A stretch of 64,000 nt of DNA, taken from assembly GCA_903913215.1 (NCBI GenBank), contig CAIWKE010000002.1, positions 62,001-126,000 on the forward strand, read 5' to 3'. Positions 16,170-26,183 of this stretch are shown here, one piece after another; position 1 is the first letter of the stretch, and each line of letters begins with the position of its first letter. The stretch is from an uncultured Holophagaceae bacterium (lineage in GTDB: Bacteria; Acidobacteriota; Holophagae; Holophagales; Holophagaceae). Below the pieces are notes generated by a model that saw only the letters and a list, made by a program, of their open reading frames with translations, was not told the origin of the DNA and did no database searches. The translations under genes and the position numbers were made by a program.

Positions 16170-16450
16170 GGTTCACCGCCTCCTGATTTTTACAGAGTGG
16201 GACCAAATACGCGCGAGTCTTGCGGTTGTAACTCCGGGGTCGGCTGAATCGACGGGCTAGGTCGGGGCTGGTCGGCAGCAACCAGCGGCGGACTCGAACC
16301 GGCGCGTGGCTGGCCACGCTTGCGGGCGCTGCGCAGGCCCCACTGGGGCCTTGCTCGCTGCAAGCTACCTGGCCGCCACTGCTTCTCGGCGGTTCGAGTC
16401 CGCCTCCTCCAATCCACCAACGAAAAGGGGCCCGATGGGCCCCGTTTCGT
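16170..16450. other. Non-coding stretch with tRNA-fragment palindromes
   Basis: No gene is supported here. The stretch holds a T-arm-like fragment in minus orientation (16287-16302), a second in plus orientation (from 16386) and a strong hairpin (16427-16443). Together with the att repeat that starts at 16451 they form alternating copies of the same tRNA 3'-end sequence. Confidence 0.6.
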
Positions 16451-16480
16451 TGGTGGCTGGAGGCGGACTCGAACCGCCGA
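16386..16480. repeat. Large imperfect inverted repeat built from a tRNA 3' end
   Basis: The left arm (16386-16433) and right arm (16437-16480) are near-exact reverse complements around a GAT loop. Both hold the T-arm sequence GGCGGTTCGAGTCCGCC, a CCACCAACGAAA end and the GGGGCCC stem. The left arm differs by a four-base insertion and two substitutions. The right arm is the authentic 3' end and terminator of the tRNA-Met locus, so the left arm looks like an inverted copy. Confidence 0.75.
16427..16443 (-). terminator. Hairpin terminator of the original tRNA-Met locus
   Basis: GGGGCCC, loop GAT, GGGCCCC. Read on the minus strand the stem is followed by TTTT, and it lies just beyond the displaced 3' end of the tRNA. 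It would have ended tRNA-Met transcription before the element inserted. Confidence 0.7.
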
Positions 16481-16496
16481 CCTGCGGATTATGAGA
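16451..16496 (-). repeat. attL: Left attachment site: displaced 3' half of tRNA-Met
   Basis: This 46-bp sequence is identical to 26107-26152. It covers the anticodon loop (TCTCATAA on the minus strand) through the CCA end of tRNA-Met. It breaks off at 16497, where AT-rich element DNA begins. This is the chromosomal 3' end left behind when the element restored the gene with its own copy. Confidence 0.9.
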
Positions 16497-16557
16497 ATTC
16501 GGGTCTAATGTATAAATTATTTATTTGTTATACTTAGAAGCAAACCGCCTTCCTCGT

Positions 16558-16575
16558 GGCACTATTTGAGCACTG
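16558..16575. repeat. Terminal direct repeat, left copy (possible integrase arm site)
   Basis: GGCACTATTTGAGCACTG, 62 bases inside the left att repeat. A copy with 16 of 18 matches lies in the same orientation near the right end at 25973-25990. Matching short repeats inside both ends suit integrase or excisionase arm-binding sites. It overlaps the 3' end of the exported-protein gene. Confidence 0.4.
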
Positions 16576-17161
16576 AGTCCGGGTAGAGTGGATGTTTTGT
16601 TGAATACTGAATCGACTTGGTTTCTACCACCCACCAGAACAGACCAGAATGTGTGCCGTCTTCGGTTGCTGGATGGTTCAAAAGATATTTTGATGATTTC
16701 GGATGTTCCTTACACCATTTGTAAATGGTGCAATAAATTAGATCTAGTTTGTAAATAATTTCTTCTTTACTGTAGATGACATTAATTGGTCTACCCATTA
16801 TAGCAATTGATGATCGTTGAACATCAATTGCTTCTTTTAAGTATGCGTCATAACGTTTATCGTTGAAAAAATTCTCAATGAAATGGCAATCTGAATCATT
16901 TGTTTCAATAGCTATTTTTGCGCAAATATTAGTTAATTCTATGCTTCCTCCGGGTTCCTTTATCTTATTGTCACAATAGGCGAAGATTGACTCGATTTTT
17001 ACATTAGATAATATTTTTTCTAAATTTTCAACTTCATGTTTTGCGTTTTTTGGTTCGAAGGTTCTGTAGAAATCGCCTCTATTAAAAGAAGGTTTAACAA
17101 ATGGAGCTGCCATTGCTAAACATGGAATAATAAACATTGAACAATATTTGATAGGGTTCAT
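16562..17161 (-). CDS. Unknown exported protein, element cargo
   Basis: A 199-residue protein not recognised. Its start MNPIKYCSMFIIPCLAMAAP reads as a signal peptide with a cleavage-like AMA-A, so export to the periplasm is likely. The mature part is mixed charged and polar without repeats, with several cysteines (YCDNKIK, NICAKI, DCHFIEN, IYCTIYKWC) that could form disulfides. The ATG has AAGGGG eight bases ahead, supporting translation. It sits between the integrase and the left att site, downstream of int on the same strand, a usual position for cargo. Base composition is AT-rich like the element. Confidence 0.6.
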   Translation of the reverse strand: MNPIKYCSMFIIPCLAMAAPFVKPSFNRGDFYRTFEPKNAKHEVENLEKILSNVKIESIFAYCDNKIKEPGGSIELTNICAKIAIETNDSDCHFIENFFNDKRYDAYLKEAIDVQRSSIAIMGRPINVIYSKEEIIYKLDLIYCTIYKWCKEHPKSSKYLLNHPATEDGTHSGLFWWVVETKSIQYSTKHPLYPDSVLK

Positions 17162-17207: not shown

Positions 17208-18236
17208 CTATAGCAATGAATTTTGAGCTTCCCTGAAGTCGTTCAGGTCTGTCTCCACATAGCCTAGCGTGGTCTGGATGTTCTTATGACGTAGCATCCT
17301 CTGAATGATGACGGTCGAAACCCCATTTTTTGAGAGCAGGGTGGCACAGGTGCCTCTCAAACGGTGTGGGGTGAGCTTGGGTAGGCCGATAGCCTTCCCG
17401 CTTGCTGTGATGGCCTTCTTAGTGAACTGCGCTCTGTGTGGCATTCCATCCTCGGCTGGCAATACCCAATCGGATGTGCGGGGTAGGGGGCTAAGAATTT
17501 CGACCACGATATCAGGAACGGGCAGGGGGACAGCTTCCTTTCCTTTGGTTTTCCCTGGTGTGTAGGTGTGGAGGTCGTCTGAGAACCATTCCCAGCGAAG
17601 TCCTAACGCCTCAGATTCTCGCAAGCCCAGATAGACCATCATCCGGACAGCAACCCGAACATGGATATTGCGTGTGTGTGAGTCGATGTGTTGTAAGAAT
17701 GGTTCGATTTTGTCTTTCGGCAGAAAGGTTTTTGGTTTTCGTTGGACTGGATGCAATTTGATTTTGAAAGGCATTTCACGGATTAGCCTTTGATGAACAC
17801 CCCATCTAAATACAAGGCGAAGGTGTCTAAGTAATGCATTTGCGCCAGAAATTGTTCTAAATTTATTGTTTGGTCCAATAGTATTAAGATACATATTTTC
17901 TATTAATGTAATATGTGATGAATTGACTTGATCTGAGTATAAGTAATCAATATGTGGCAATATATGAAGCACAAAGTCTCCCTTTACTCTTGATATATGG
18001 GAAACTGTTGACGTTTTTATATGCGATTCAAGCCATTTATGAAATAGAATCTCGACAGTTGGTGATGGACCTATATTTAATTCCGTCAGAGCAAGTGTGT
18101 CTCTAAATACTTTTAACCATTTTTGTGCATTTTGGTAGTTTTCACACCCTGTTGATTTATTAATTGTTTTACCGTTGTGCTTAAAGTGGCAATAATACAC
18201 GCGGCCATTTTTGACTAGACCATTTCTCGTTGTCAT
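17208..18236 (-). CDS. int: Tyrosine recombinase (integrase) of the element
   Basis: A 342-residue phage-type integrase that would insert and excise the element at tRNA-Met. The catalytic residues are visible: Arg in YLGLRESEALGLRW (~210), Lys in the beta-hairpin TKGKEAVPL, HRLR (~293), His in MLRHKNIQTT (~316) and the nucleophile Tyr in TLGYVETD (~325). A SAM-like core-binding domain (TVEILFHKWLESHIK) and an N-terminal AP2-like arm-binding part (VYYCHFKHNGKTINKSTG) precede it. The C-terminal half has higher GC than the N-terminal half. It is divergent from the regulator at 18593. Confidence 0.93.
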   Translation of the reverse strand: MTTRNGLVKNGRVYYCHFKHNGKTINKSTGCENYQNAQKWLKVFRDTLALTELNIGPSPTVEILFHKWLESHIKTSTVSHISRVKGDFVLHILPHIDYLYSDQVNSSHITLIENMYLNTIGPNNKFRTISGANALLRHLRLVFRWGVHQRLIREMPFKIKLHPVQRKPKTFLPKDKIEPFLQHIDSHTRNIHVRVAVRMMVYLGLRESEALGLRWEWFSDDLHTYTPGKTKGKEAVPLPVPDIVVEILSPLPRTSDWVLPAEDGMPHRAQFTKKAITASGKAIGLPKLTPHRLRGTCATLLSKNGVSTVIIQRMLRHKNIQTTLGYVETDLNDFREAQNSLL

Positions 18237-18592
18237 ATCATGCTCTATTATGTGAAATACGGTTAAACGATGATAACGTTTCCAGGATAAACAATCATTC
18301 GTCTATTGTGAATCGTCGCGATTGGATTCATTTTATTCATAATATGGTTGCAAAATTCATTAGATAATTTAAAATTCACACAAACACCACATTGTATTTC
18401 GGAGTGTCTAATTTGTTTTGTATGACATTTCCGACCATGCTAGTATAAATGACACAGGCGGCATTTCTATGCGAAATATTCGTCATGTATTTAGAGAATT
18501 CATTTAGCTTCAGTCCATGCCTTTAATAGATCAACCATACTTAGAGTCGTAAAAATTTGAATATTTACGACTCAATAAGAAAGGATGAATGC
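18237..18592. other. Divergent intergenic region between integrase and regulator
   Basis: This AT-rich gap of 356 bp separates the leftward integrase from the rightward replication genes and must hold both promoters. Apart from the 30-bp inverted repeat listed separately, I see no gene, no tRNA and no strong repeat in it. Confidence 0.6.
18544..18573. promoter_or_regulatory. Perfect inverted repeat upstream of the regulator gene (operator)
   Basis: GAGTCGTAAA, ten bases, then TTTACGACTC: two perfect 10-bp arms ending 20 bp before the ATG of the small DNA-binding protein. A centre-to-centre spacing of two helical turns suits a dimeric repressor or activator. Likely binders are the adjacent 76-residue protein or the XRE protein of the same element. 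Confidence 0.6.
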
Positions 18593-18820
18593 ATGGACTT
18601 GGAATCCTTGCTATCTAAAACAGGTGTTTCACCAAGCATTAGGTATGAGCCTAGTGATGTGTGTAAAATACTTGGAATTTCGTATCGTCAATTGAGATGG
18701 ATAATCCTTCAACAACACATACCAGTTATTATATATGGTAAGAAGTTGGCCTTCATTCTCCATGAAGACCTAGATCGAATGGTTGTTTCATCATACAGAA
18801 CAGAAAAGGTCAATGTATGA
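18593..18820 (+). CDS. Small helix-turn-helix protein (AlpA/excisionase-like)
   Basis: A 75-residue protein with the helix-turn-helix pattern YEPSDVCKILGISYRQLRWIILQQHIPVI, as in AlpA/MerR-type regulators and excisionases. The final part (ILHEDLDRMV) fits the usual closing helix. The ATG at 18593 has AAAGGA at good spacing and is preferred over the one at 18557, which lies inside the inverted repeat. It overlaps the next gene by ATGA, so the two are coupled. In satellites such proteins switch on excision and replication; that role is inferred here. Confidence 0.6.
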   Translation: MDLESLLSKTGVSPSIRYEPSDVCKILGISYRQLRWIILQQHIPVIIYGKKLAFILHEDLDRMVVSSYRTEKVNV

Positions 18821-19059
18821 TCGATCTAATAGATGCGAATGATTTAAAATTTCTCTTCAAGACTCATTTCAAAATAAATTTGGACGGAAAAAAGTTGGCT
18901 AGTTTAAAACAAGAAGGAATGCCATTTTATAAAATTAGCAAAAAATGTCACAGATACATATGGAATGAGTGTTGTGAATATATTTTAAATAAAAAAACAA
19001 TTGTAGACATTGTTAAAAATGCAAAATTAAAGGCAGGGTTTGGTTATAAATATAAATAA
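18817..19059 (+). CDS. Unknown 80-residue element protein
   Basis: Not recognised. It overlaps the upstream regulator by four bases (ATGA), which supports translation by coupling. The sequence is basic and lysine-rich (KINLDGKKLASLKQEGMPFYKISKKCHRYIW), and the GMPFYKI segment resembles the wing after a helix-turn-helix in small DNA-binding proteins, where a target residue is read after 'GMP'. It ends with a basic tail. A DNA-binding role in replication or excision is plausible but unproven. Confidence 0.5.
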   Translation: MIDLIDANDLKFLFKTHFKINLDGKKLASLKQEGMPFYKISKKCHRYIWNECCEYILNKKTIVDIVKNAKLKAGFGYKYK

Positions 19060-19164
19060 TTTATAAAACACACTGTAAACAAAATAGAAAAATTTAGACA
19101 AAAAATTAAATATTAATATATGACATGGCCTTCGGTCTATTTTGCGTCGGATAATGGGGAATTT

Positions 19165-21279
19165 ATGATCAGCAAAGAAAACATGTATGAAAGAGCATTA
19201 AGGTATTTGAAAATTGGAGTGGTAGTAATACCTGTAGCTTACAAAGAAAAAAAGCCATCGATACCTTGGAAAATTTACCAAACTCAAAAACCAACAATCG
19301 AAGAATATAAAAAATGGTTTTATGGAAAAAATACAAATATGGGAATTGTGACGGGAGAATACTATGGATTGATATGTGTTGACCAGGACAGTCAAGAAGC
19401 AATTGATTACGTTAATACAAATCTTCCTAAAACATCAATGATGACGAAAACAGGTAGTGGTAAACTACACTCATATTACAGACATCCAGGCACACCAATA
19501 CCGAATGGTGTAAATATTAATAATATTAAAATCGATATCCGTGGGGATGGTGGTCAAGTTGTTGCACCTGGGTCCGTTCATCCCAAAGGTGGCGTATACG
19601 AGGAGATTGGGGAGTGGGGTCCAATTAGTGAATTGCCTATCTTTGACCGAAGATGGTTTGATGAAAATTCACCATCTGACCGAACGAGAAATATTGGGAA
19701 CTCATCGAGTGATGAAATTGATCCGGAGGTTCTTGAATACATCAACAGTAGTGAGGATTCAATTGAAGGGAGCAATGGAAGTGCCGTATTAACGAAGGTT
19801 GCTAGGAAATTTATCAGCGGTTTCAAACTTAACCGCGATGAAGCTATGCGATGTTTGATCTTATGGAATGTGAAGTGCGCTAAGCCCCTGTGGTCTGAGC
19901 ATGAGTTAGAACACGCTTTAGATAATGTCATTCACACAACAGGATCCAATAATAAAAATAAGAATAATAAAAAAACAAGTATAATTATCGATTCAATACT
20001 AAATTGGAAATATTATAACGATGGTAGTCCAAAATCAATCAAGAAGACTGGTGATAATTTAATGAAAATTATTGCCAATCATGAAGATCTACATGGTGTT
20101 ATTGGATTTAATGAATTAATTAGTAGTGCTGTTATACTTAAAGAACCACCTTGGCATGATTGTTATCTCGACTCACCCGATTTTGTCAATGGTGTCGCCT
20201 GGTCTGATGACGATACAATAGGAATAATTGGATGGATAGAATCGAAATACGATGTTACATATGCTCCAAATATTGTTAATATGGCGATTGACCTTGTATC
20301 AAAAGCAAATTCATTTCATCCTATTCGCAAAATGCTTAGATCTGTTGAATGGGATAGAATAGATAGGGTTAATAAGATGATGAATATATACTATGGTTGT
20401 GAGGATACGAAGTATGCACAACTGGTAGGTCGATACCTTATGATATCCATGGTAGTCAGAGTTGAAGAGCCTGGATGCAAAGTTGACCATTGCGTTATAC
20501 TTGAAGGTTTACAATCTACATGCAAAAGTCAGAGCATTAGAGCCTTGGCAAGAAAAAGTGAATACTTCATTGACTCAGATATACCAATTGGCAAAACGGA
20601 CGCATATCAGATTATCCGTGGTGGGTGGCTCATTGAAGTGCCTGAAATAGATAAGTTATTCAAACATGACCCATCTGACCTAAAGGCATACATCACGAGT
20701 CAGATTGATACATATAGGCCGTCCTATGGACGTAGGGCTTTAAAATTTCCCAGGCAATGTGTATTCATAGGAACCACAAATGCACAACACTATTTAAAGG
20801 ATATTACAGGCAACAGGCGCTTCTGGCCAATCAAGACAAACTGTATTGATCTTGAAGGTTTAAAACGGGATGCAGATCAATTGCTGGCTGAGGCATTGTA
20901 TCTACTTCAACAAGGTGAACGCTGGTGGCCTGATAGGGAAGAGCAATGTCAAATCTTTAGTCCCGAACAAAAAACACGAATGATGACAGATGTATGGGAA
21001 AAGATTATTTGGGACTATATCTACTCAGGCAATAAATTGAAAGTCGAGATATCTGAAATACTTGAAAAGGCAATTCAACTTAAGGCTTCAGAATGGAATC
21101 ACTCGCATGAGAATAGAGTGGCCAAGATCTTGCTTGGTTTTGGTTGGGAAAGGAAACAACTCAGACATAAGGGTGATGGATTACATCGGCGGTTTTATGC
21201 ATACATTAAGCCCTTGAATTTAAATGATGATAATCAACTCAATGTGTTACACCTTTCTGAAGACTATGATATCGAATAA
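19165..21279 (+). CDS. Bifunctional primase-polymerase / VapE-type helicase replication protein
   Basis: A 704-residue protein. The first ~190 residues are a primase-polymerase (AEP-like) domain: YLKIGVVVIPVAYKEKKPSIPW, NMGIVTGEYYGLICVDQDS with metal-binding acids, and HPKGGVYEE. The second half is a virulence-associated E (VapE) helicase: the P-loop-like GLQSTCKSQ, DIPIGKTDAYQIIRGGWLIEVPEID as Walker B, and FIGTTNAQHYLKDITGNRRFWPI with sensor and arginine-finger positions. It would start DNA synthesis at the element's origin. ATG 19165 has GGGGA five bases ahead, while the ATG at 19120 has no ribosome site. It is followed by a long hairpin and repeats. Confidence 0.85.
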   Translation: MISKENMYERALRYLKIGVVVIPVAYKEKKPSIPWKIYQTQKPTIEEYKKWFYGKNTNMGIVTGEYYGLICVDQDSQEAIDYVNTNLPKTSMMTKTGSGKLHSYYRHPGTPIPNGVNINNIKIDIRGDGGQVVAPGSVHPKGGVYEEIGEWGPISELPIFDRRWFDENSPSDRTRNIGNSSSDEIDPEVLEYINSSEDSIEGSNGSAVLTKVARKFISGFKLNRDEAMRCLILWNVKCAKPLWSEHELEHALDNVIHTTGSNNKNKNNKKTSIIIDSILNWKYYNDGSPKSIKKTGDNLMKIIANHEDLHGVIGFNELISSAVILKEPPWHDCYLDSPDFVNGVAWSDDDTIGIIGWIESKYDVTYAPNIVNMAIDLVSKANSFHPIRKMLRSVEWDRIDRVNKMMNIYYGCEDTKYAQLVGRYLMISMVVRVEEPGCKVDHCVILEGLQSTCKSQSIRALARKSEYFIDSDIPIGKTDAYQIIRGGWLIEVPEIDKLFKHDPSDLKAYITSQIDTYRPSYGRRALKFPRQCVFIGTTNAQHYLKDITGNRRFWPIKTNCIDLEGLKRDADQLLAEALYLLQQGERWWPDREEQCQIFSPEQKTRMMTDVWEKIIWDYIYSGNKLKVEISEILEKAIQLKASEWNHSHENRVAKILLGFGWERKQLRHKGDGLHRRFYAYIKPLNLNDDNQLNVLHLSEDYDIE

Positions 21280-21294
21280 ACCGGACAGCAAGTC

Positions 21295-21341
21295 CAAGGA
21301 AGGCCATCATCAAGTCGTGAACCTGGTGATGGCCTTCCTTG
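21295..21341. terminator. Long hairpin after the primase/VapE gene
   Basis: Two perfect 15-base arms (CAAGGAAGGCCATCA and its reverse complement) around a 17-base loop, starting 15 bases after the stop codon. There is no clear T-run, so it may be a processing or protective structure or a weak terminator. Confidence 0.55.
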
Positions 21342-21343
21342 TC

Positions 21344-21445
21344 TCTAGTGTCACTAGATTGCTACCCGCTCCGAAGTATATAATATTCAATTCTTCAGTC
21401 ACTACAAATCAACTGGTGACACTGGTGACAGGGACGATGAGTCCC
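21344..21445. other. ori: Candidate replication origin of the element
   Basis: Directly after the primase/helicase gene lie a 15-bp palindrome (TCTAGTGTCACTAGA), an AT-rich patch, two tandem copies of ACTGGTGAC (21412-21429) and a GGGAC/GTCCC hairpin (21431-21445). Short repeats beside a self-encoded primase-helicase are what an origin of this class would look like, but there are too few repeat units to be sure. Confidence 0.3.
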
Positions 21446-21816
21446 ACAGTTACCTATCCAAGGCAGATCAACCCCTGGGATGCCAGCTCCATGGAGCCAG
21501 AACGCACCATAGGGACGGTTGAACTGCCAAGGGCAGGGAAGGGGGGCGCAGTGGATTCGGGTCTTACCTGTCATTGGATATCTCTCCTTATTAATTGTTA
21601 CGTTATTTCTTCTTGTCATCCTTCTCAAGTATCCACCTTAGTAATACGGTTACAATTACACCTGCGAGGTTTGGAATCATTTGATACTCCCATTAATTGA
21701 ATTGATAATATAAATTATTATTCTATACTTATTATAACATTTTAATGTTAGTTTTTGCACTAGACATATGCAAATGAATTGTAGACAACTCATTTGTCTT
21801 TATTGAGGCACAAAAA

Positions 21817-21844
21817 AAGAGCCGGACAAAGAAATCCGGCTCTT
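21817..21844 (-). terminator. Rho-independent terminator of the cargo block
   Basis: AAGAGCCGGA and TCCGGCTCTT form a 10-bp stem. On the minus strand it is followed by a run of Ts and lies 20 bp after the last leftward cargo gene. It closes the six-gene block. Confidence 0.8.
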
Positions 21845-21863
21845 GATCGTTGACTCTCTATTT

Positions 21864-22505
21864 TTACTTCTTGGCCTTTCTTTCACGCTCCTCTTTAGAG
21901 GTCGTAAAGATCCAACCATTGCTGTCTCTTTCATTAGTCGATTCCATTTTTGCCGCCAAAGCAATTGCTGTGGTCTTATGTTCCTTCAACATTCCTTCGA
22001 GCTTTTCGGCCAATGCAGCAGGGGGGAGAAACGGTGCGAGGCCCACCAAGATCGAAGCCAGTTTCTCAGGATCACTCTTCTTGATTGGCCCTTTACTCCC
22101 TGAAACCTGACTAACCATGAAATGGAAAGCTTCTTCATTGGTTACGCCAGCTTCTTCGAGTTGATTAAGAAGGGCGGTCTTTTCCGACCAGGGGCAGAAG
22201 GGAGATAGAAGAGCTTCTTCAATTTTGTATGCCTTCTTCTTGCTCTCAAGTGAGGCAAAAGTATTTTTGATCTGTCCAAGTTCCTTTGCATTGATTCTTG
22301 CGTCTGAATGTTCCTTGGTGGATTCCTTGACGTAGTAGTATGAACCAGCTCCTTTACCTTCATGATGCTTGATGATTGTAGAAAGATCCTTCTTTGCCAT
22401 GTCTAAATCTCCGAGTGTTTTGCTGGTATCAATACCAGCTTGGTTGAATAGATCTCGATCAGCATGGTTATTCTGATCAGTTTGTTTTTTCTTAAATAGT
22501 CCCAT
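21864..22505 (-). CDS. Unknown soluble 213-residue protein, cargo
   Basis: Not recognised. No signal peptide or membrane segment is visible. The N-terminus (MGLFKKKQTDQNNHADRDLF) is basic and polar, the middle is rich in Lys and Glu with helical character, and APFLPPAALAEKLEGMLKEHKTTAIALAAK near the end looks like helices with a proline hinge. GGAGAG precedes the ATG by seven bases. It is the last gene of the leftward block, with its own terminator after it and a terminator-like hairpin (22565-22591) before it, so it may be expressed separately. Confidence 0.55.
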   Translation of the reverse strand: MGLFKKKQTDQNNHADRDLFNQAGIDTSKTLGDLDMAKKDLSTIIKHHEGKGAGSYYYVKESTKEHSDARINAKELGQIKNTFASLESKKKAYKIEEALLSPFCPWSEKTALLNQLEEAGVTNEEAFHFMVSQVSGSKGPIKKSDPEKLASILVGLAPFLPPAALAEKLEGMLKEHKTTAIALAAKMESTNERDSNGWIFTTSKEERERKAKK

Positions 22506-22564
22506 ACGAATCTCTCCAACTGGACGATGAAATCATAGATCAAGTATCCCAAGCGTCAACAAAA

Positions 22565-22591
22565 AAATGACCAACTCAATGTTGGTCATTT
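22565..22591 (-). terminator. Terminator inside the cargo block
   Basis: AAATGACCAAC, loop TCAAT, GTTGGTCATTT; on the minus strand it runs into TTTTTTT-like bases. It lies 19 bp after the 159-residue gene and 60 bp before the next start, so it separates the last cargo gene from the rest. Confidence 0.75.
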
Positions 22592-22609
22592 CAGGAAAAC
22601 CATTATTTA

Positions 22610-23089
22610 TCATATATACATTTTTTGGGGATCTCGCAATCTCACCTCCTTTACCTTGAATCCAAGCCTATCGTGCCCTAGTTCATCTGACGTTCTTTGG
22701 CTCATAACTTCCATATTCCAAATCGCCGCTTTCGCGCCATACTTGAGCAAAGCAATTCCACCGACAAGGTCTGCATAAGTCCACTGAGGATGCAAGACAA
22801 CCTCTAGGTTTGATCTGTCGCTGAATATGACCCATTCAGATGTTAATTTATCCATTAAATATATTGAATATAAATCGTTTTCGATTTTAATGCATGAAGT
22901 GTCATTATCCGGGTGAAAAAATATATTTAAAGATTTAAATACTCTTGGTTCGATATGTTCTTTCAATTCAAGTATTGTATTTATATGCTTGCATCTAATT
23001 TTTTCACATAAAATCAAATCAACATCGTTATAAAAATTTTCAACATCAATGTTAATATCATTAGCTGGCATTTGTGTTTTGTTACACAT
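22610..23089 (-). CDS. Unknown soluble 159-residue protein, cargo
   Basis: Not recognised. No signal peptide is visible. The protein is acidic in its first half (DINIDVENFYNDVDLILCEKI), then carries EWVIFSDRSNLEVVLHPQWTYADLVGGIALLKYGAKAAIW, an alternation of strands and a helix. GGAGGA sits right before the ATG at good spacing, the strongest ribosome site in the block. A small acidic cytosolic protein beside exported partners could be an immunity-type protein, but nothing in its sequence proves this. Confidence 0.55.
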   Translation of the reverse strand: MCNKTQMPANDINIDVENFYNDVDLILCEKIRCKHINTILELKEHIEPRVFKSLNIFFHPDNDTSCIKIENDLYSIYLMDKLTSEWVIFSDRSNLEVVLHPQWTYADLVGGIALLKYGAKAAIWNMEVMSQRTSDELGHDRLGFKVKEVRLRDPQKMYI

Positions 23090-23170
23090 AATTCCTCCAT
23101 GTAATATTATACCGCACGGAAAAAAATAGAGAAATTATATATATATTAATAATACTATATGAATACAAAT

Positions 23171-23743
23171 TTAATTACATATTAGCTTGCGAAATATACT
23201 CGCAGAATAAATTCGATCAACTATACTATCTGGCATTTGTATCGTCTTTTTATTACCATTAGCAGCTATAAGGCTTACACTCAAGGGTGTAAAAGTTCCC
23301 TTGATACAGTTAATTTCAACATAAGATTCTGTTGATTCTATTGATTTTATATTATTTGCAACAACTTCACTATATATCATTCCGATTGCAATTTTTTGGC
23401 GTTCATCTTCATCCTTTTCCATCGACAATCGTTTTGATGAGTTAACAATTGGCATTCTTTTTTTGAATAAATCCATGAATCTTGCTTCTTCTTTTTTTGA
23501 TTCTGATTTTGATTTAACAAGATATCTTTTCATTTCTTTCAATGTAATGTATTTTATCCATAAATTAATTTTGTCACCGGACCTTTGAATCGTATCTGGA
23601 CTATAGAACAATACTATACCTTCGACATTCATAATTTGTGAATTATTCTTGGTAACAATTTCTTGAACATGTTGCCAGTCGTGACCATAAGCAAAAGAAC
23701 TGCATATAAAAAACATAGAGAATATCGTTTTTATGTACGACAT
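23171..23743 (-). CDS. Unknown exported protein, cargo
   Basis: A 190-residue protein not recognised. MSYIKTIFSMFFICSSFAYGHDW is a signal peptide with a likely cut after AYG. The mature part is Lys/Glu-rich in the middle (KSKSESKKEEARFMDLFKKR) and beta-like towards the end (YVEINCIKGTFTPLSVSLIAANGNKKTIQMP). Two cysteines remain in the mature chain (INC and LICN), which could form one disulfide. AAAGGA precedes the ATG. It follows the Sel1 gene in the same direction, so periplasmic cooperation with it is plausible. Confidence 0.55.
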   Translation of the reverse strand: MSYIKTIFSMFFICSSFAYGHDWQHVQEIVTKNNSQIMNVEGIVLFYSPDTIQRSGDKINLWIKYITLKEMKRYLVKSKSESKKEEARFMDLFKKRMPIVNSSKRLSMEKDEDERQKIAIGMIYSEVVANNIKSIESTESYVEINCIKGTFTPLSVSLIAANGNKKTIQMPDSIVDRIYSASIFRKLICN

Positions 23744-23790
23744 ATTTTTATCCTTTAATAATTTTTATATTATGTTTTATATTTTTTGTA

Positions 23791-24351
23791 TTATAGTTTA
23801 GATTTATCATTAATTTCAACTTTAATTTTATTTTTTCTATCTAGGGCCTTTTGAAGTTCTTCCTCTGCTAGATTTTTTTCGAGATTCTCAAGAATATCCC
23901 CGATACGTCCATCTTTAATGTTTCCCTCTACTGCTATACTTAGCCATGCGTGAGCTTCAATAGGGTCTTTGAAAACGCCGTTTCCAAATAAATAGCAGCA
24001 CCCTAGTCTTGCCTGGCTGACCACATAGCCTTGCTCTGCTGACTTCCTGTATAAATTTGCTGCTTCAGTTAAGTTCTTGGTGGTCCCCATTCCAGTTTCA
24101 AAACAGACTCCGAGAAGAAATTGAGCATTCTTGTTATTTAATGCAGATGCCTTTTTAAACCACATTACAGCGGTAGAAAGGTTTTGCTTTAACCCGTTAC
24201 TACCAGCCATGTATCTAGCACCAACAATGGTCATCGCTTCAGGATCACCATGTTTAGCTTTTGAAATTAGATCATCTCCTTTTGCAATAGTGATGTTAAA
24301 AAATAGAACAACCATGATTAGCATCGATTTATATAATTTAGAAATGTTCAT
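23791..24351 (-). CDS. Exported Sel1-like repeat protein, cargo
   Basis: A 186-residue protein with a signal peptide (LIMVVLFFNITIAKG) and about three Sel1-like repeats (AMTIVGARYMAGSNGLKQNLSTAVMWFKKAS-type units, each 36 residues with the A..W and G..D patterns) at residues ~30-145. Sel1 repeats form alpha-solenoids that bind proteins. The C-terminal 35 residues are a charged helix. The start has no strong ribosome site, but lies 12 bp after the stop of a 42-residue membrane protein, which suggests coupling. Confidence 0.75.
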   Translation of the reverse strand: MNISKLYKSMLIMVVLFFNITIAKGDDLISKAKHGDPEAMTIVGARYMAGSNGLKQNLSTAVMWFKKASALNNKNAQFLLGVCFETGMGTTKNLTEAANLYRKSAEQGYVVSQARLGCCYLFGNGVFKDPIEAHAWLSIAVEGNIKDGRIGDILENLEKNLAEEELQKALDRKNKIKVEINDKSKL

Positions 24352-24363
24352 TATAATTTATTC

Positions 24364-24492
24364 TTATTTAAATGATTCTACAAATTCTTTTCGTGATCTT
24401 TCTTCCGCAGTTGCTGCGACATACATTCGCCATAGGACAATAGCTGCTATTGCTGCGAGTATTCCCAGGATGACCTTTGTTGATATTTTCAT
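24364..24492 (-). CDS. Small single-pass membrane protein (42 residues)
   Basis: A short gene in the gap between two cargo genes. It reads MKISTKVILGILAAIAAIVL, then WRMYVAATAEERSRKEFVESFK: one membrane helix at ~6-24 followed by a charged tail, with a basic N-terminus. AAAGG lies nine bases before the ATG. The spacing to its neighbours (50 bp before, 12 bp after) fits an operon. It may be an anchor or a partner for the flanking membrane and Sel1 proteins. Function unknown. Confidence 0.6.
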   Translation of the reverse strand: MKISTKVILGILAAIAAIVLWRMYVAATAEERSRKEFVESFK

Positions 24493-24542
24493 TTTTAATA
24501 CCTTTACGTGTTGTTGATGATTGCATGTAATGGCATATTATT

Positions 24543-25139
24543 TTATTTATTATTAATCAATAGTTCAGAATCAATCACAAAGCCATCAATTTCCTTTTGC
24601 GTTTGAATCCATCGTTTTCTTTGATTGTCATATTCTTCCATTTCTTCATAGATTTTCTTGGCGACACCACGAAAGGTGGATTCATTATCTTGAGTCCAGT
24701 CATAGGATGCAATGTTTCTTTTTCGATAATCCAATAATCGTTTTCCACGATCATCCACATCTCGACGTTGATACCCCCAATAAGCAATTCTTAAATGAAC
24801 AGCCTCTTTTATTAATTTACGTGCCTTTTCCAGATCGTCGCCACATGCTTCAAATTCTTTTCGTTCATCGCCGGTCAATACATTATGTCCACTAAAGTCA
24901 CAAACATTCATCATATCCTTAATGACATTTTGAATAATAGTGTGCCTCTTCTCATGCTCAGCCAACAGTCTTGCCTTTTCCTGTTCTTGATGTAATCGTT
25001 CCTGTTCCTTCTGAATTTTAGCTATTTTATTTAGATGATTATTATACATTAAATAGCTTGATGGAATTACTATAACAAACATCCCAATCAAGACTGCCCC
25101 AATTTTCTTAGCAGGTGTGTTCATGTAACCCAGACTCAT
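24543..25139 (-). CDS. Membrane-anchored coiled-coil protein, cargo
   Basis: A 198-residue protein not recognised. One membrane segment lies at residues ~12-30 (IGAVLIGMFVIVIPSSYLMY), followed by a long charged coiled coil (KIAKIQKEQERLHQEQEKARLLAEHEKR) and a helical, charged C-terminal part (YWGYQRRDVDDRGKRLLDYRKRN). It is the first gene of the leftward cargo block. The start could also be the ATG at 25124; neither has a clearly spaced ribosome site. The arrangement resembles a scaffold held in the inner membrane with the coiled coil outside or inside; the orientation cannot be told. Confidence 0.55.
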   Translation of the reverse strand: MSLGYMNTPAKKIGAVLIGMFVIVIPSSYLMYNNHLNKIAKIQKEQERLHQEQEKARLLAEHEKRHTIIQNVIKDMMNVCDFSGHNVLTGDERKEFEACGDDLEKARKLIKEAVHLRIAYWGYQRRDVDDRGKRLLDYRKRNIASYDWTQDNESTFRGVAKKIYEEMEEYDNQRKRWIQTQKEIDGFVIDSELLINNK

Positions 25140-25423
25140 TCCCCTTCTCCCGTATGAACTATTCTTCTTATCGTAAAATCAGAAGAATACAGGTCAAAAG
25201 ACAAAATATAATTTAAATTCTGTTGGCTGTCTTAATTAGCTTATATCGAATTGAAGCAGGAAGTATCCCCATGAATCTACTCCGAACATCCGACAAATTG
25301 AGGATTGGAAATTCTGCTAATTTAAATCTATGGCGTTCGCCGTATTTTTCCGCCCCTCTGCAAAGGGGGACGGGGTGATACCGCCAGAATAGACATATTG
25401 CGTTTTACGATCCAGAGGTATCC
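25140..25423. other. Divergent promoter region, cargo block and XRE gene
   Basis: A gap of 284 bp between the first leftward cargo gene and the rightward regulator. It is AT-rich on the left and more GC-rich from about 25330. No further gene is visible; it must hold both promoters and probably the binding site of the XRE protein. Confidence 0.5.
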
Positions 25424-25900
25424 ATGACTCGTCGTGATGCCTACGGGACGAAAACGGCAAAGACAAGCCCCAAAACCTTTGGAGAACGTCTTAGGCGCAT
25501 CCGGATTGCATGGGGATTGAGTCAAGGTCAGCTAGCGGAATCACTTGGTTCCAATCAACGCCTCATCTCGCATTGGGAAAGAGACATCGCCAAACCTTCC
25601 GGTGCTGCGATGACCGCTATCACCTCACTAATCGGAGTCACTTCACAGGCGCTCTTAACGGACAAAGGATTTTCAATTCCTGACATCCCCGCGAAAGTCG
25701 AAGGTGTGACCAAAGAGAACGTGGCTAAATTTGCTGCCTTGTCAAACCTGTTGCCACAAACTGAGACAGAAGGGGTGATGTTCGTAGACCTCGACTCCTT
25801 CCAAACGAAGCACTATTCCGTTGCTGAGTCTGTGCGGGCGCTGAAATCCGCGAGTGGTGAAGGAAGTGAGGTCTGGATAGTGGTTCGAGTCCCGAGGTGA
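25424..25900 (+). CDS. XRE-family helix-turn-helix transcription regulator
   Basis: A 158-residue protein. Residues ~18-75 form the Cro/C1-type DNA-binding domain: FGERLRRIRIAWGLSQGQLAESLGSNQRLISHWERDIAKPSG, with the classical second helix and recognition helix. The rest (to residue 158) has no second recognised domain. It is alone on its strand at the right end of the element and divergent from the cargo block, so it probably controls cargo or element genes. Its GC is nearer the chromosome's than that of the cargo genes. Confidence 0.8.
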   Translation: MTRRDAYGTKTAKTSPKTFGERLRRIRIAWGLSQGQLAESLGSNQRLISHWERDIAKPSGAAMTAITSLIGVTSQALLTDKGFSIPDIPAKVEGVTKENVAKFAALSNLLPQTETEGVMFVDLDSFQTKHYSVAESVRALKSASGEGSEVWIVVRVPR

Positions 25901-26106: not shown

Positions 26107-26152
26107 TGGTGGCTGGAGGCGGACTCGAACCGCCGACCTGCGGATTATGAGA
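26107..26152 (-). repeat. attR: Right attachment site: restored 3' half of tRNA-Met
   Basis: Identical over 46 bp to 16451-16496. The crossover lies within the anticodon-loop-to-3'-end segment, so the element brings its own 3' half and leaves the tRNA intact. Confidence 0.9.
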
Positions 26153-26183
26153 CCGCTGCTCTAACCAGCTGAGCTACCCAGCC
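26107..26183 (-). tRNA. tRNA-Met (CAT), elongator type
   Basis: 77 bases with encoded CCA. The acceptor stem GGCTGGG pairs with TCCAGCC (one G-T), and the D-arm TAGCTCAGCTGGTTAGAGCA, anticodon loop CTCATAA (CAT) and T-arm GGCGGTTCGAGTCCGCC are all present. The anticodon stem has one T-T mismatch next to the loop. The acceptor and D-arm resemble elongator Met more than initiator or the Ile2 species at 38734. It is the integration target of the element. Confidence 0.9.

What the first reader, a model, noticed from the sequence alone, without database searches (positions are those of the whole stretch)
21864..25139. One-directional block of six unknown cargo genes, mostly exported or membrane proteins
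The block holds a membrane-anchored coiled coil, a 42-residue membrane protein, an exported Sel1-repeat protein, another exported protein, a small acidic cytosolic protein and a soluble helical protein, with terminators after the fifth and sixth genes. Most have good ribosome sites and tight spacing. Together with the exported protein at 16562 they suggest an envelope-directed system: surface exclusion, anti-phage defence or a toxin with immunity. None is recognised, so function is open.
Basis: partly seen in the sequence, partly recalled or inferred. Interest (0 to 1): 0.68.

Follow-up and report, generated by a model that had tools for sequence, protein, structure and literature searches.

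The report
Cargo of satellite-like Geothrix mobile element
The six genes are real but are not one system: the last belongs to the backbone of a 9.7-kb phage-satellite-like mobile element, and the other five are one-off passenger genes in a family of elements whose relatives carry known anti-phage defences, so they are untested defence candidates.

Summary
The six minus-strand ORFs exist at the stated coordinates, with terminators after genes 5 and 6. They sit in a 9,656-bp element inserted in tRNA-Met (47-bp direct repeat), with integrase, Xis-like HTH protein, PrimPol-VapE replicase and Xre repressor, and no recognised virion or conjugation gene.

They are not one six-gene system. Gene 6 (21864-22505) is a backbone gene: relatives occur in seven other genomes, all of the window's genus, beside Xre or Rep/Int genes where context is intact, and without genes 1-5. 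Genes 1-5 are variable cargo: gene 3 is a secreted Sel1 protein, gene 4 is Adhesin_E-like, gene 5 had no relative and gene 1 one weak partial hit in 347 phylum genomes.

All four sibling elements whose ends could be mapped carry recognised defence genes (DRT8; Lamassu-like; McrBC plus methyltransferase; GmrSD plus HEPN). The slot read divergently from Xre holds a membrane or exported protein in all six elements where it is visible.

Best reading: a lineage of satellite-like, defence-carrying elements, in which genes 1-4 are probably envelope-acting phage-exclusion cargo. The anatomy is well supported; the function is inferred (about 0.38). Toxin-immunity and conjugative surface exclusion have no support.

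The parts
16451..16497 (.). attL: 47 bp identical to the 3' part of the tRNA-Met gene
   Evidence: direct repeat D2, offset 9656
26107..26183 (-). tRNA-Met (CAT), intact; its 3' part 26107-26153 is attR
   Evidence: ARAGORN, Rfam RF00005, repeat D2
16562..17161 (-). orphan exported protein, 199 aa, between attL and the integrase
   Evidence: no family match, no relative in 77 family genomes or viral contigs
17208..18236 (-). tyrosine integrase, 342 aa
   Evidence: NCBIfam tyrosine recombinases; relatives in sibling elements
18557..18820 (+). Xis/AlpA-like HTH_17 protein (TTG start)
   Evidence: Pfam HTH_17 3.1e-4, below the curated cut-off
18817..19059 (+). small protein, 80 aa, overlapping the Xis-like gene by 4 bp
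   Evidence: ORF and position; no family
19120..21279 (+). PrimPol-VapE replicase (true start probably at a later ATG)
   Evidence: Pfam VapE-like 1.5e-66, Prim-Pol 3.4e-22
21864..22505 (-). gene 6: soluble helical protein, element backbone gene, own transcription unit
   Evidence: relatives in seven other genomes of the genus
22610..23089 (-). gene 5: orphan acidic cytosolic protein, 159 aa
   Evidence: no relative found
23171..23743 (-). gene 4: exported Adhesin_E-like protein, 190 aa
   Evidence: relative L037:3855-4442, which passes the Pfam Adhesin_E cut-off
23791..24351 (-). gene 3: exported Sel1-repeat protein, 186 aa
   Evidence: Pfam Sel1 2.3e-26; PDB Sel1 proteins
24364..24492 (-). 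gene 2: 42-aa single-span membrane peptide
   Evidence: hydrophobic segment and codon score; translation unproven
24543..25139 (-). gene 1: N-terminally anchored, charged helical protein, 198 aa
   Evidence: ORF and hydrophobic segment; one weak partial hit in 347 genomes
25170..25178 (-). candidate operator TTTTACGAT over the -10 of a promoter-like site of gene 1
   Evidence: one of only two copies in the element; promoter-like 25197-25170
25403..25411 (+). candidate operator TTTTACGAT just upstream of xre
   Evidence: second, inverted copy
25424..25900 (+). Xre repressor, 158 aa, with a C-terminal domain shared by sibling elements
   Evidence: HTH matches; alignment A1 and relatives
22564..22592 (-). 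terminator after gene 5
   Evidence: 12-pair stem and T run
21817..21844 (-). terminator after gene 6
   Evidence: 11-pair stem and T run

Best explanation
The finding is the cargo end of a 9.66-kb phage-satellite-like integrative element of a lineage found in Geothrix and its family. The element sits in tRNA-Met, encodes its own integrase, Xis-like factor and PrimPol-VapE replicase, and is presumably kept silent by its Xre repressor. Gene 6 is backbone. Genes 1-4, with gene 5 downstream, occupy the variable slot read divergently from xre, and should place one anchored helical protein, one 42-aa membrane peptide and two exported proteins (Sel1, Adhesin_E-like) in the inner membrane and periplasm. 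Their most likely function is to protect the host, and so the element, from other phages at the envelope, in the manner of superinfection exclusion (interference with adsorption or DNA entry). Shown: the insertion, the backbone, the sibling elements, defence genes in siblings, membrane or exported proteins in the same slot of siblings. Inferred: mobility by a helper phage, Xre control of gene 1, export of the proteins, and the exclusion function.
For: 47-bp tRNA-Met repeat 9656 bp apart; integrase and PrimPol-VapE, no virion gene among the scanned proteins; Xre and gene 6 shared with sibling elements; four of four siblings with mapped ends carry defence genes: DRT8 2.4e-157, Lamassu LmuA/LmuB/LmuC, McrBC plus MTase, GmrSD_N plus HEPN; the slot divergent from xre holds at least one membrane or exported protein in six of six visible cases; TTTTACGAT occurs only twice in the element, inverted, beside xre and over the gene 1 promoter.
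Against: No protein of the block matches a known defence family. Genes 1-5 were found together nowhere else, so co-function is not supported by co-occurrence. Promoter-like sites before genes 4 and 5 argue against one operon. In siblings the recognised defence genes are mostly not in the same slot as the membrane proteins, and membrane proteins are common anyway. No helper phage or excision was seen.
Confidence: 0.38

Rival explanations
1. Loose fitness cargo: genes 1-5 are independently acquired exported or membrane genes (lysogenic-conversion type, for envelope maintenance, adhesion or stress) with no common function and no anti-phage role.
For: Genes 1-5 never co-occur elsewhere; separate promoter-like sites; gene 4's only relative is in an integron-like array of mostly exported proteins; Sel1 and Adhesin_E proteins are common chromosomal genes (general knowledge).
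Against: Sibling elements repeatedly carry defence genes; genes 1-3 are fairly close together, read away from xre.
Confidence: 0.35
2. Element life-cycle or helper interference: the proteins serve the element itself, for instance in sensing or exploiting an infecting helper phage.
For: Position next to the repressor; small satellites use such genes to interfere with helpers (PMC10803314).
Against: Genes 1-5 are absent from the sibling elements, so they are not needed for the life cycle.
Confidence: 0.12
3. A toxin-immunity or contact-dependent system, with an exported toxin and gene 5 as cytosolic immunity protein.
For: One small acidic cytosolic protein beside exported ones.
Against: No toxin, immunity or delivery domain; the proteins are 159-198 aa without modular layout; the gene 5 model is too poor to compare.
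Confidence: 0.05
4. Surface exclusion of a conjugative element.
For: Membrane and exported proteins on a mobile element.
Against: No relaxase, coupling protein or mating-pair gene recognised in the element.
Confidence: 0.02

Closest known systems
PICMI satellites of Vibrionaceae (PMC10803314)
   Same: Small (6-kb class) element with integrase, AlpA-like HTH protein and primase, an unknown-gene cargo slot in which a new defence gene was proven, and known defence systems in relatives
   Different: Primase here is PrimPol-VapE, not DUF3987/DUF5906; site is tRNA-Met, not fis; an Xre repressor and gene 6 are present; different host phylum
P4-like satellites and their defence hotspot (PMC8628076, PMC9122126)
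   Same: Integrase plus replicase plus a variable defence slot, no full virion set
   Different: None of psu, delta, sid or epsilon recognised; different replicase layout and repressor
Superinfection exclusion of (cryptic) prophages, for example DicB (PMC6832061)
   Same: Protection at the inner membrane encoded by an integrated element
   Different: No sequence relation found; function here is inferred only
Sibling elements in Geothrix fermentans DSM 14018, G. limicola Red804 and relatives
   Same: Same Xre type, related integrases, gene 6, related or analogous replicases
   Different: High G+C; cargo different (DRT8, Lamassu-like, McrBC, GmrSD/HEPN); other insertion sites

Membership tests
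phage satellite (general, PMC13376191) | flanking attL/attR repeats | tested here: met
   47-bp tRNA-Met repeat
phage satellite (general, PMC13376191) | 7-20 kb with integrase, regulatory and replication genes | tested here: met
   9.66 kb; Int, Xis-like, Xre, PrimPol-VapE
phage satellite (general, PMC13376191) | no genes for virion structure | tested here: met
   no structural family among the ten proteins scanned against PHROGs; Int and Xre excluded by their own families
phage satellite (general, PMC13376191) | induced and packaged by a helper phage | not testable with these tools
   needs infection or particle DNA; Xre and gene 6 searches of viral contigs gave no element
PICMI | integration at fis | tested here: not met
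   site is tRNA-Met
PICMI | primase with DUF3987 and DUF5906 | tested here: not met
   PrimPol plus VapE-like; DUF5906 only 15.3 bits against a cut-off of 27.6
PICMI | AlpA (PF05930 or PF12728) | tested here: inconclusive
   HTH_17 PF12728 21.4 bits against a cut-off of 27
P4-like satellite | psu, delta, sid, epsilon | tested here: not met
   no such match among the element's proteins in Pfam or PHROGs
known anti-phage defence system | match to a described defence protein family | tested here: not met
   PADLOC: none for genes 1-6 beyond chance-level 0.039
Sel1 repeat protein (gene 3) | Sel1 repeats above the curated cut-off | tested here: met
   91.7 bits against 30.7, three stretches
Adhesin_E (gene 4) | Pfam PF16747 above the cut-off | tested here: inconclusive
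   14.1 bits against 23.7, but its relative in L037 scores 25.9
conjugative element with surface exclusion | conjugation or mobilisation genes | tested here: not met
   none recognised

The most novel reading that the evidence does not exclude
Genes 1-5 form an undescribed multi-protein, envelope-located phage-exclusion complex (anchored helical protein, 42-aa membrane peptide, periplasmic Sel1 scaffold, Adhesin_E-like exported protein, cytosolic partner), carried by a new lineage of phage satellites in Acidobacteriota.
Probability: 0.14. Interest if true: 0.75.

Novelty: new member of a known kind. Interest (0 to 1): 0.5.

Why it matters
It turns a list of unknown ORFs into a testable setting: a lineage of satellite-like elements in Geothrix and relatives, with a backbone (integrase, replicase, Xre, gene 6) and a variable region that in siblings holds known anti-phage systems. 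I found no description of such satellites in Acidobacteriota among the papers searched, though that library is partial. The slot beside Xre is a place to look for new envelope-acting defence genes, which searches aimed at intracellular defence miss.

Tried and rejected
Six-gene unit: rejected, gene 6 is backbone and the rest occur alone. Decayed fragments: rejected, larger ORFs intact with coding-type codon use. Integron-cassette origin of the block: considered because gene 4's relative lies in such an array; gaps of 12-104 bp leave little room for attC sites, but no dedicated attC search was run. Structure predictions: gene 5 alone (mean pLDDT 53) and gene 6 with four sequences (43) were unusable; Foldseek for gene 5 had no match below E 0.5. 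Searches without result: viral contigs for the replicase, genes 1, 4, 5, 6 and the 16562 protein; genome contigs for genes 1 and 5; plasmids for genes 1 and 4; phages for genes 1, 5, 6. Enrichment of exported proteins against host genes could not be computed well, because my ORF calls in high-G+C DNA include false frames. Lower-scoring Xre relatives (E 1e-16 to 1e-35) in other Holophagaceae were fetched but their surroundings lack the backbone genes, so they were not counted as siblings.

Full report
Observation. Six minus-strand ORFs lie at 21864-25139 as described. The five larger ones are far longer than chance allows and use codons like the element's replicase; the 42-residue ORF is supported mainly by its codon score. 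Terminators follow genes 5 and 6, and promoter-like sites precede genes 4, 5 and 6. Genes 1-4 and the 16562 protein have an N-terminal hydrophobic segment by a crude predictor. Gene 3 is a Sel1 protein.

Setting. The genes lie in a low-G+C island bounded by a 47-bp direct repeat of the 3' part of tRNA-Met, 9656 bp apart. Inside are a tyrosine integrase, an HTH_17-type Xis-like protein, an 80-aa protein, a PrimPol-VapE replicase and an Xre repressor. No virion or conjugation gene was recognised. The host belongs to the genus that includes Geothrix fermentans and G. limicola: the contigs of two same-genus genomes carry those names.

Relatives. The Xre protein, including its C-terminal domain, recurs at high score in elements of G. 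fermentans, G. limicola, an Acidobacteria MAG, a Holophagaceae MAG, and one contig binned as Syntrophobacteraceae. Gene 6 has relatives in seven other genomes, all of the same genus: next to Xre in three, beside Rep, LRR-like and integrase genes in two, and broken by a stop in two; a further copy is fused to the end of an integrase, the scar of a deletion. None of these elements carries genes 1-5, so gene 6 is backbone and the six genes are not a unit.

Orphans. Gene 5 has no relative in 77 family genomes, 347 phylum genomes, phages or viral contigs. The 16562 protein has none in 77 family genomes or viral contigs. Gene 1 has one weak partial hit (3e-4, with a stop inside) in 347 genomes. Gene 4 has one relative (26% identity), in an integron-like array of mostly exported proteins; that relative passes the Pfam cut-off for Adhesin_E, so gene 4 is called Adhesin_E-like.

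Cargo of siblings. Four siblings have mapped ends: 27.5 kb (G009), 20.0 kb (G006) and 17.8 kb (G049), each flanked by a short or imperfect direct duplication, and 18.5 kb (G050), flanked by a 49-bp repeat with tRNA-Arg. They carry DRT8 (G009), a Lamassu-like trio (G006), McrBC with a type II methyltransferase (G049), and GmrSD_N with a RiboL-PSP-HEPN protein (G050). In all six elements where the slot divergent from Xre is visible, it holds at least one membrane or exported protein: SHOCT membrane proteins (L030, L031), an anchored protein (L032), a GYF-domain and a small anchored protein (L049, the same element as G050), a run of exported proteins and lipoproteins including a Sel1 protein (L052), and genes 1-4 here. 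If a third of all proteins are exported or membrane-bound (general knowledge, not measured here), this is suggestive, not strong.

Regulation. TTTTACGAT occurs only twice in the element, inverted, at 25403 beside xre and at 25170 over the -10 of a promoter-like site of gene 1. In L030-L032 a palindrome of the form ATATCGGA..ACCGATAT lies just upstream of xre. This fits Xre control of both sides of the divergent region but remains inference.

What it works like, and what it is. By anatomy the element is satellite-like: att repeats, 9.66 kb, integrase, regulator and replicase, no virion genes, matching the description in PMC13376191. It is not a PICMI (wrong site, wrong primase; PMC10803314) and not P4-like (no psu, delta, sid or epsilon recognised; PMC8628076). 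Satellites of both kinds carry defence hotspots, including unknown genes later shown to act against phages (PMC9122126, PMC10803314). Whether a helper phage mobilises the present element is untested.

Conclusion. The cargo has no described defence signature. Given the siblings, phage exclusion at the envelope is the likeliest single function (0.38), with unrelated fitness cargo close behind (0.35). Structure predictions did not help. The most interesting and least certain reading, a multi-protein envelope exclusion complex, is put at 0.14.

Noticed in passing
window 16287-16304 and 16386-16407: Extra fragments of tRNA 3' ends in both orientations beside attL, flanking a G+C-rich terminator-like hairpin; possibly scars of earlier integrations.
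   Followed up: partly
L037 (G005:C10:1-10861): Integron-like array of about a dozen mostly exported proteins separated by repeated attC-like sequences, in the window's genus.
   Followed up: no
L129:1375-2238 (G006:C2): In-frame fusion of the gene 6 N-terminus to an integrase C-terminus: apparent deletion remnant of a sibling element.
   Followed up: partly
L127, L128 (G043:C290, G045:C69): Near-identical copies of gene 6 broken by a TAG stop in two genomes, near transposase-like genes.
   Followed up: no
window 21280-21864: Intergenic stretch with a G+C-rich patch at about 21400-21580, no ORF of note, no Rfam match and no relative in the fetched loci; candidate origin, packaging or regulatory region.
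   Followed up: partly
L120 (G009:C8:47726-52975): A 1749-aa exported protein inside the 27.5-kb sibling element, not identified.
   Followed up: no
L052:2298-9331: Run of nine minus-strand genes divergent from Xre, mostly exported or lipoproteins (LPP20-type lipoprotein, periplasmic-binding plus Sel1 protein, TPR protein), a better candidate for a true envelope system than the window's block.
   Followed up: partly
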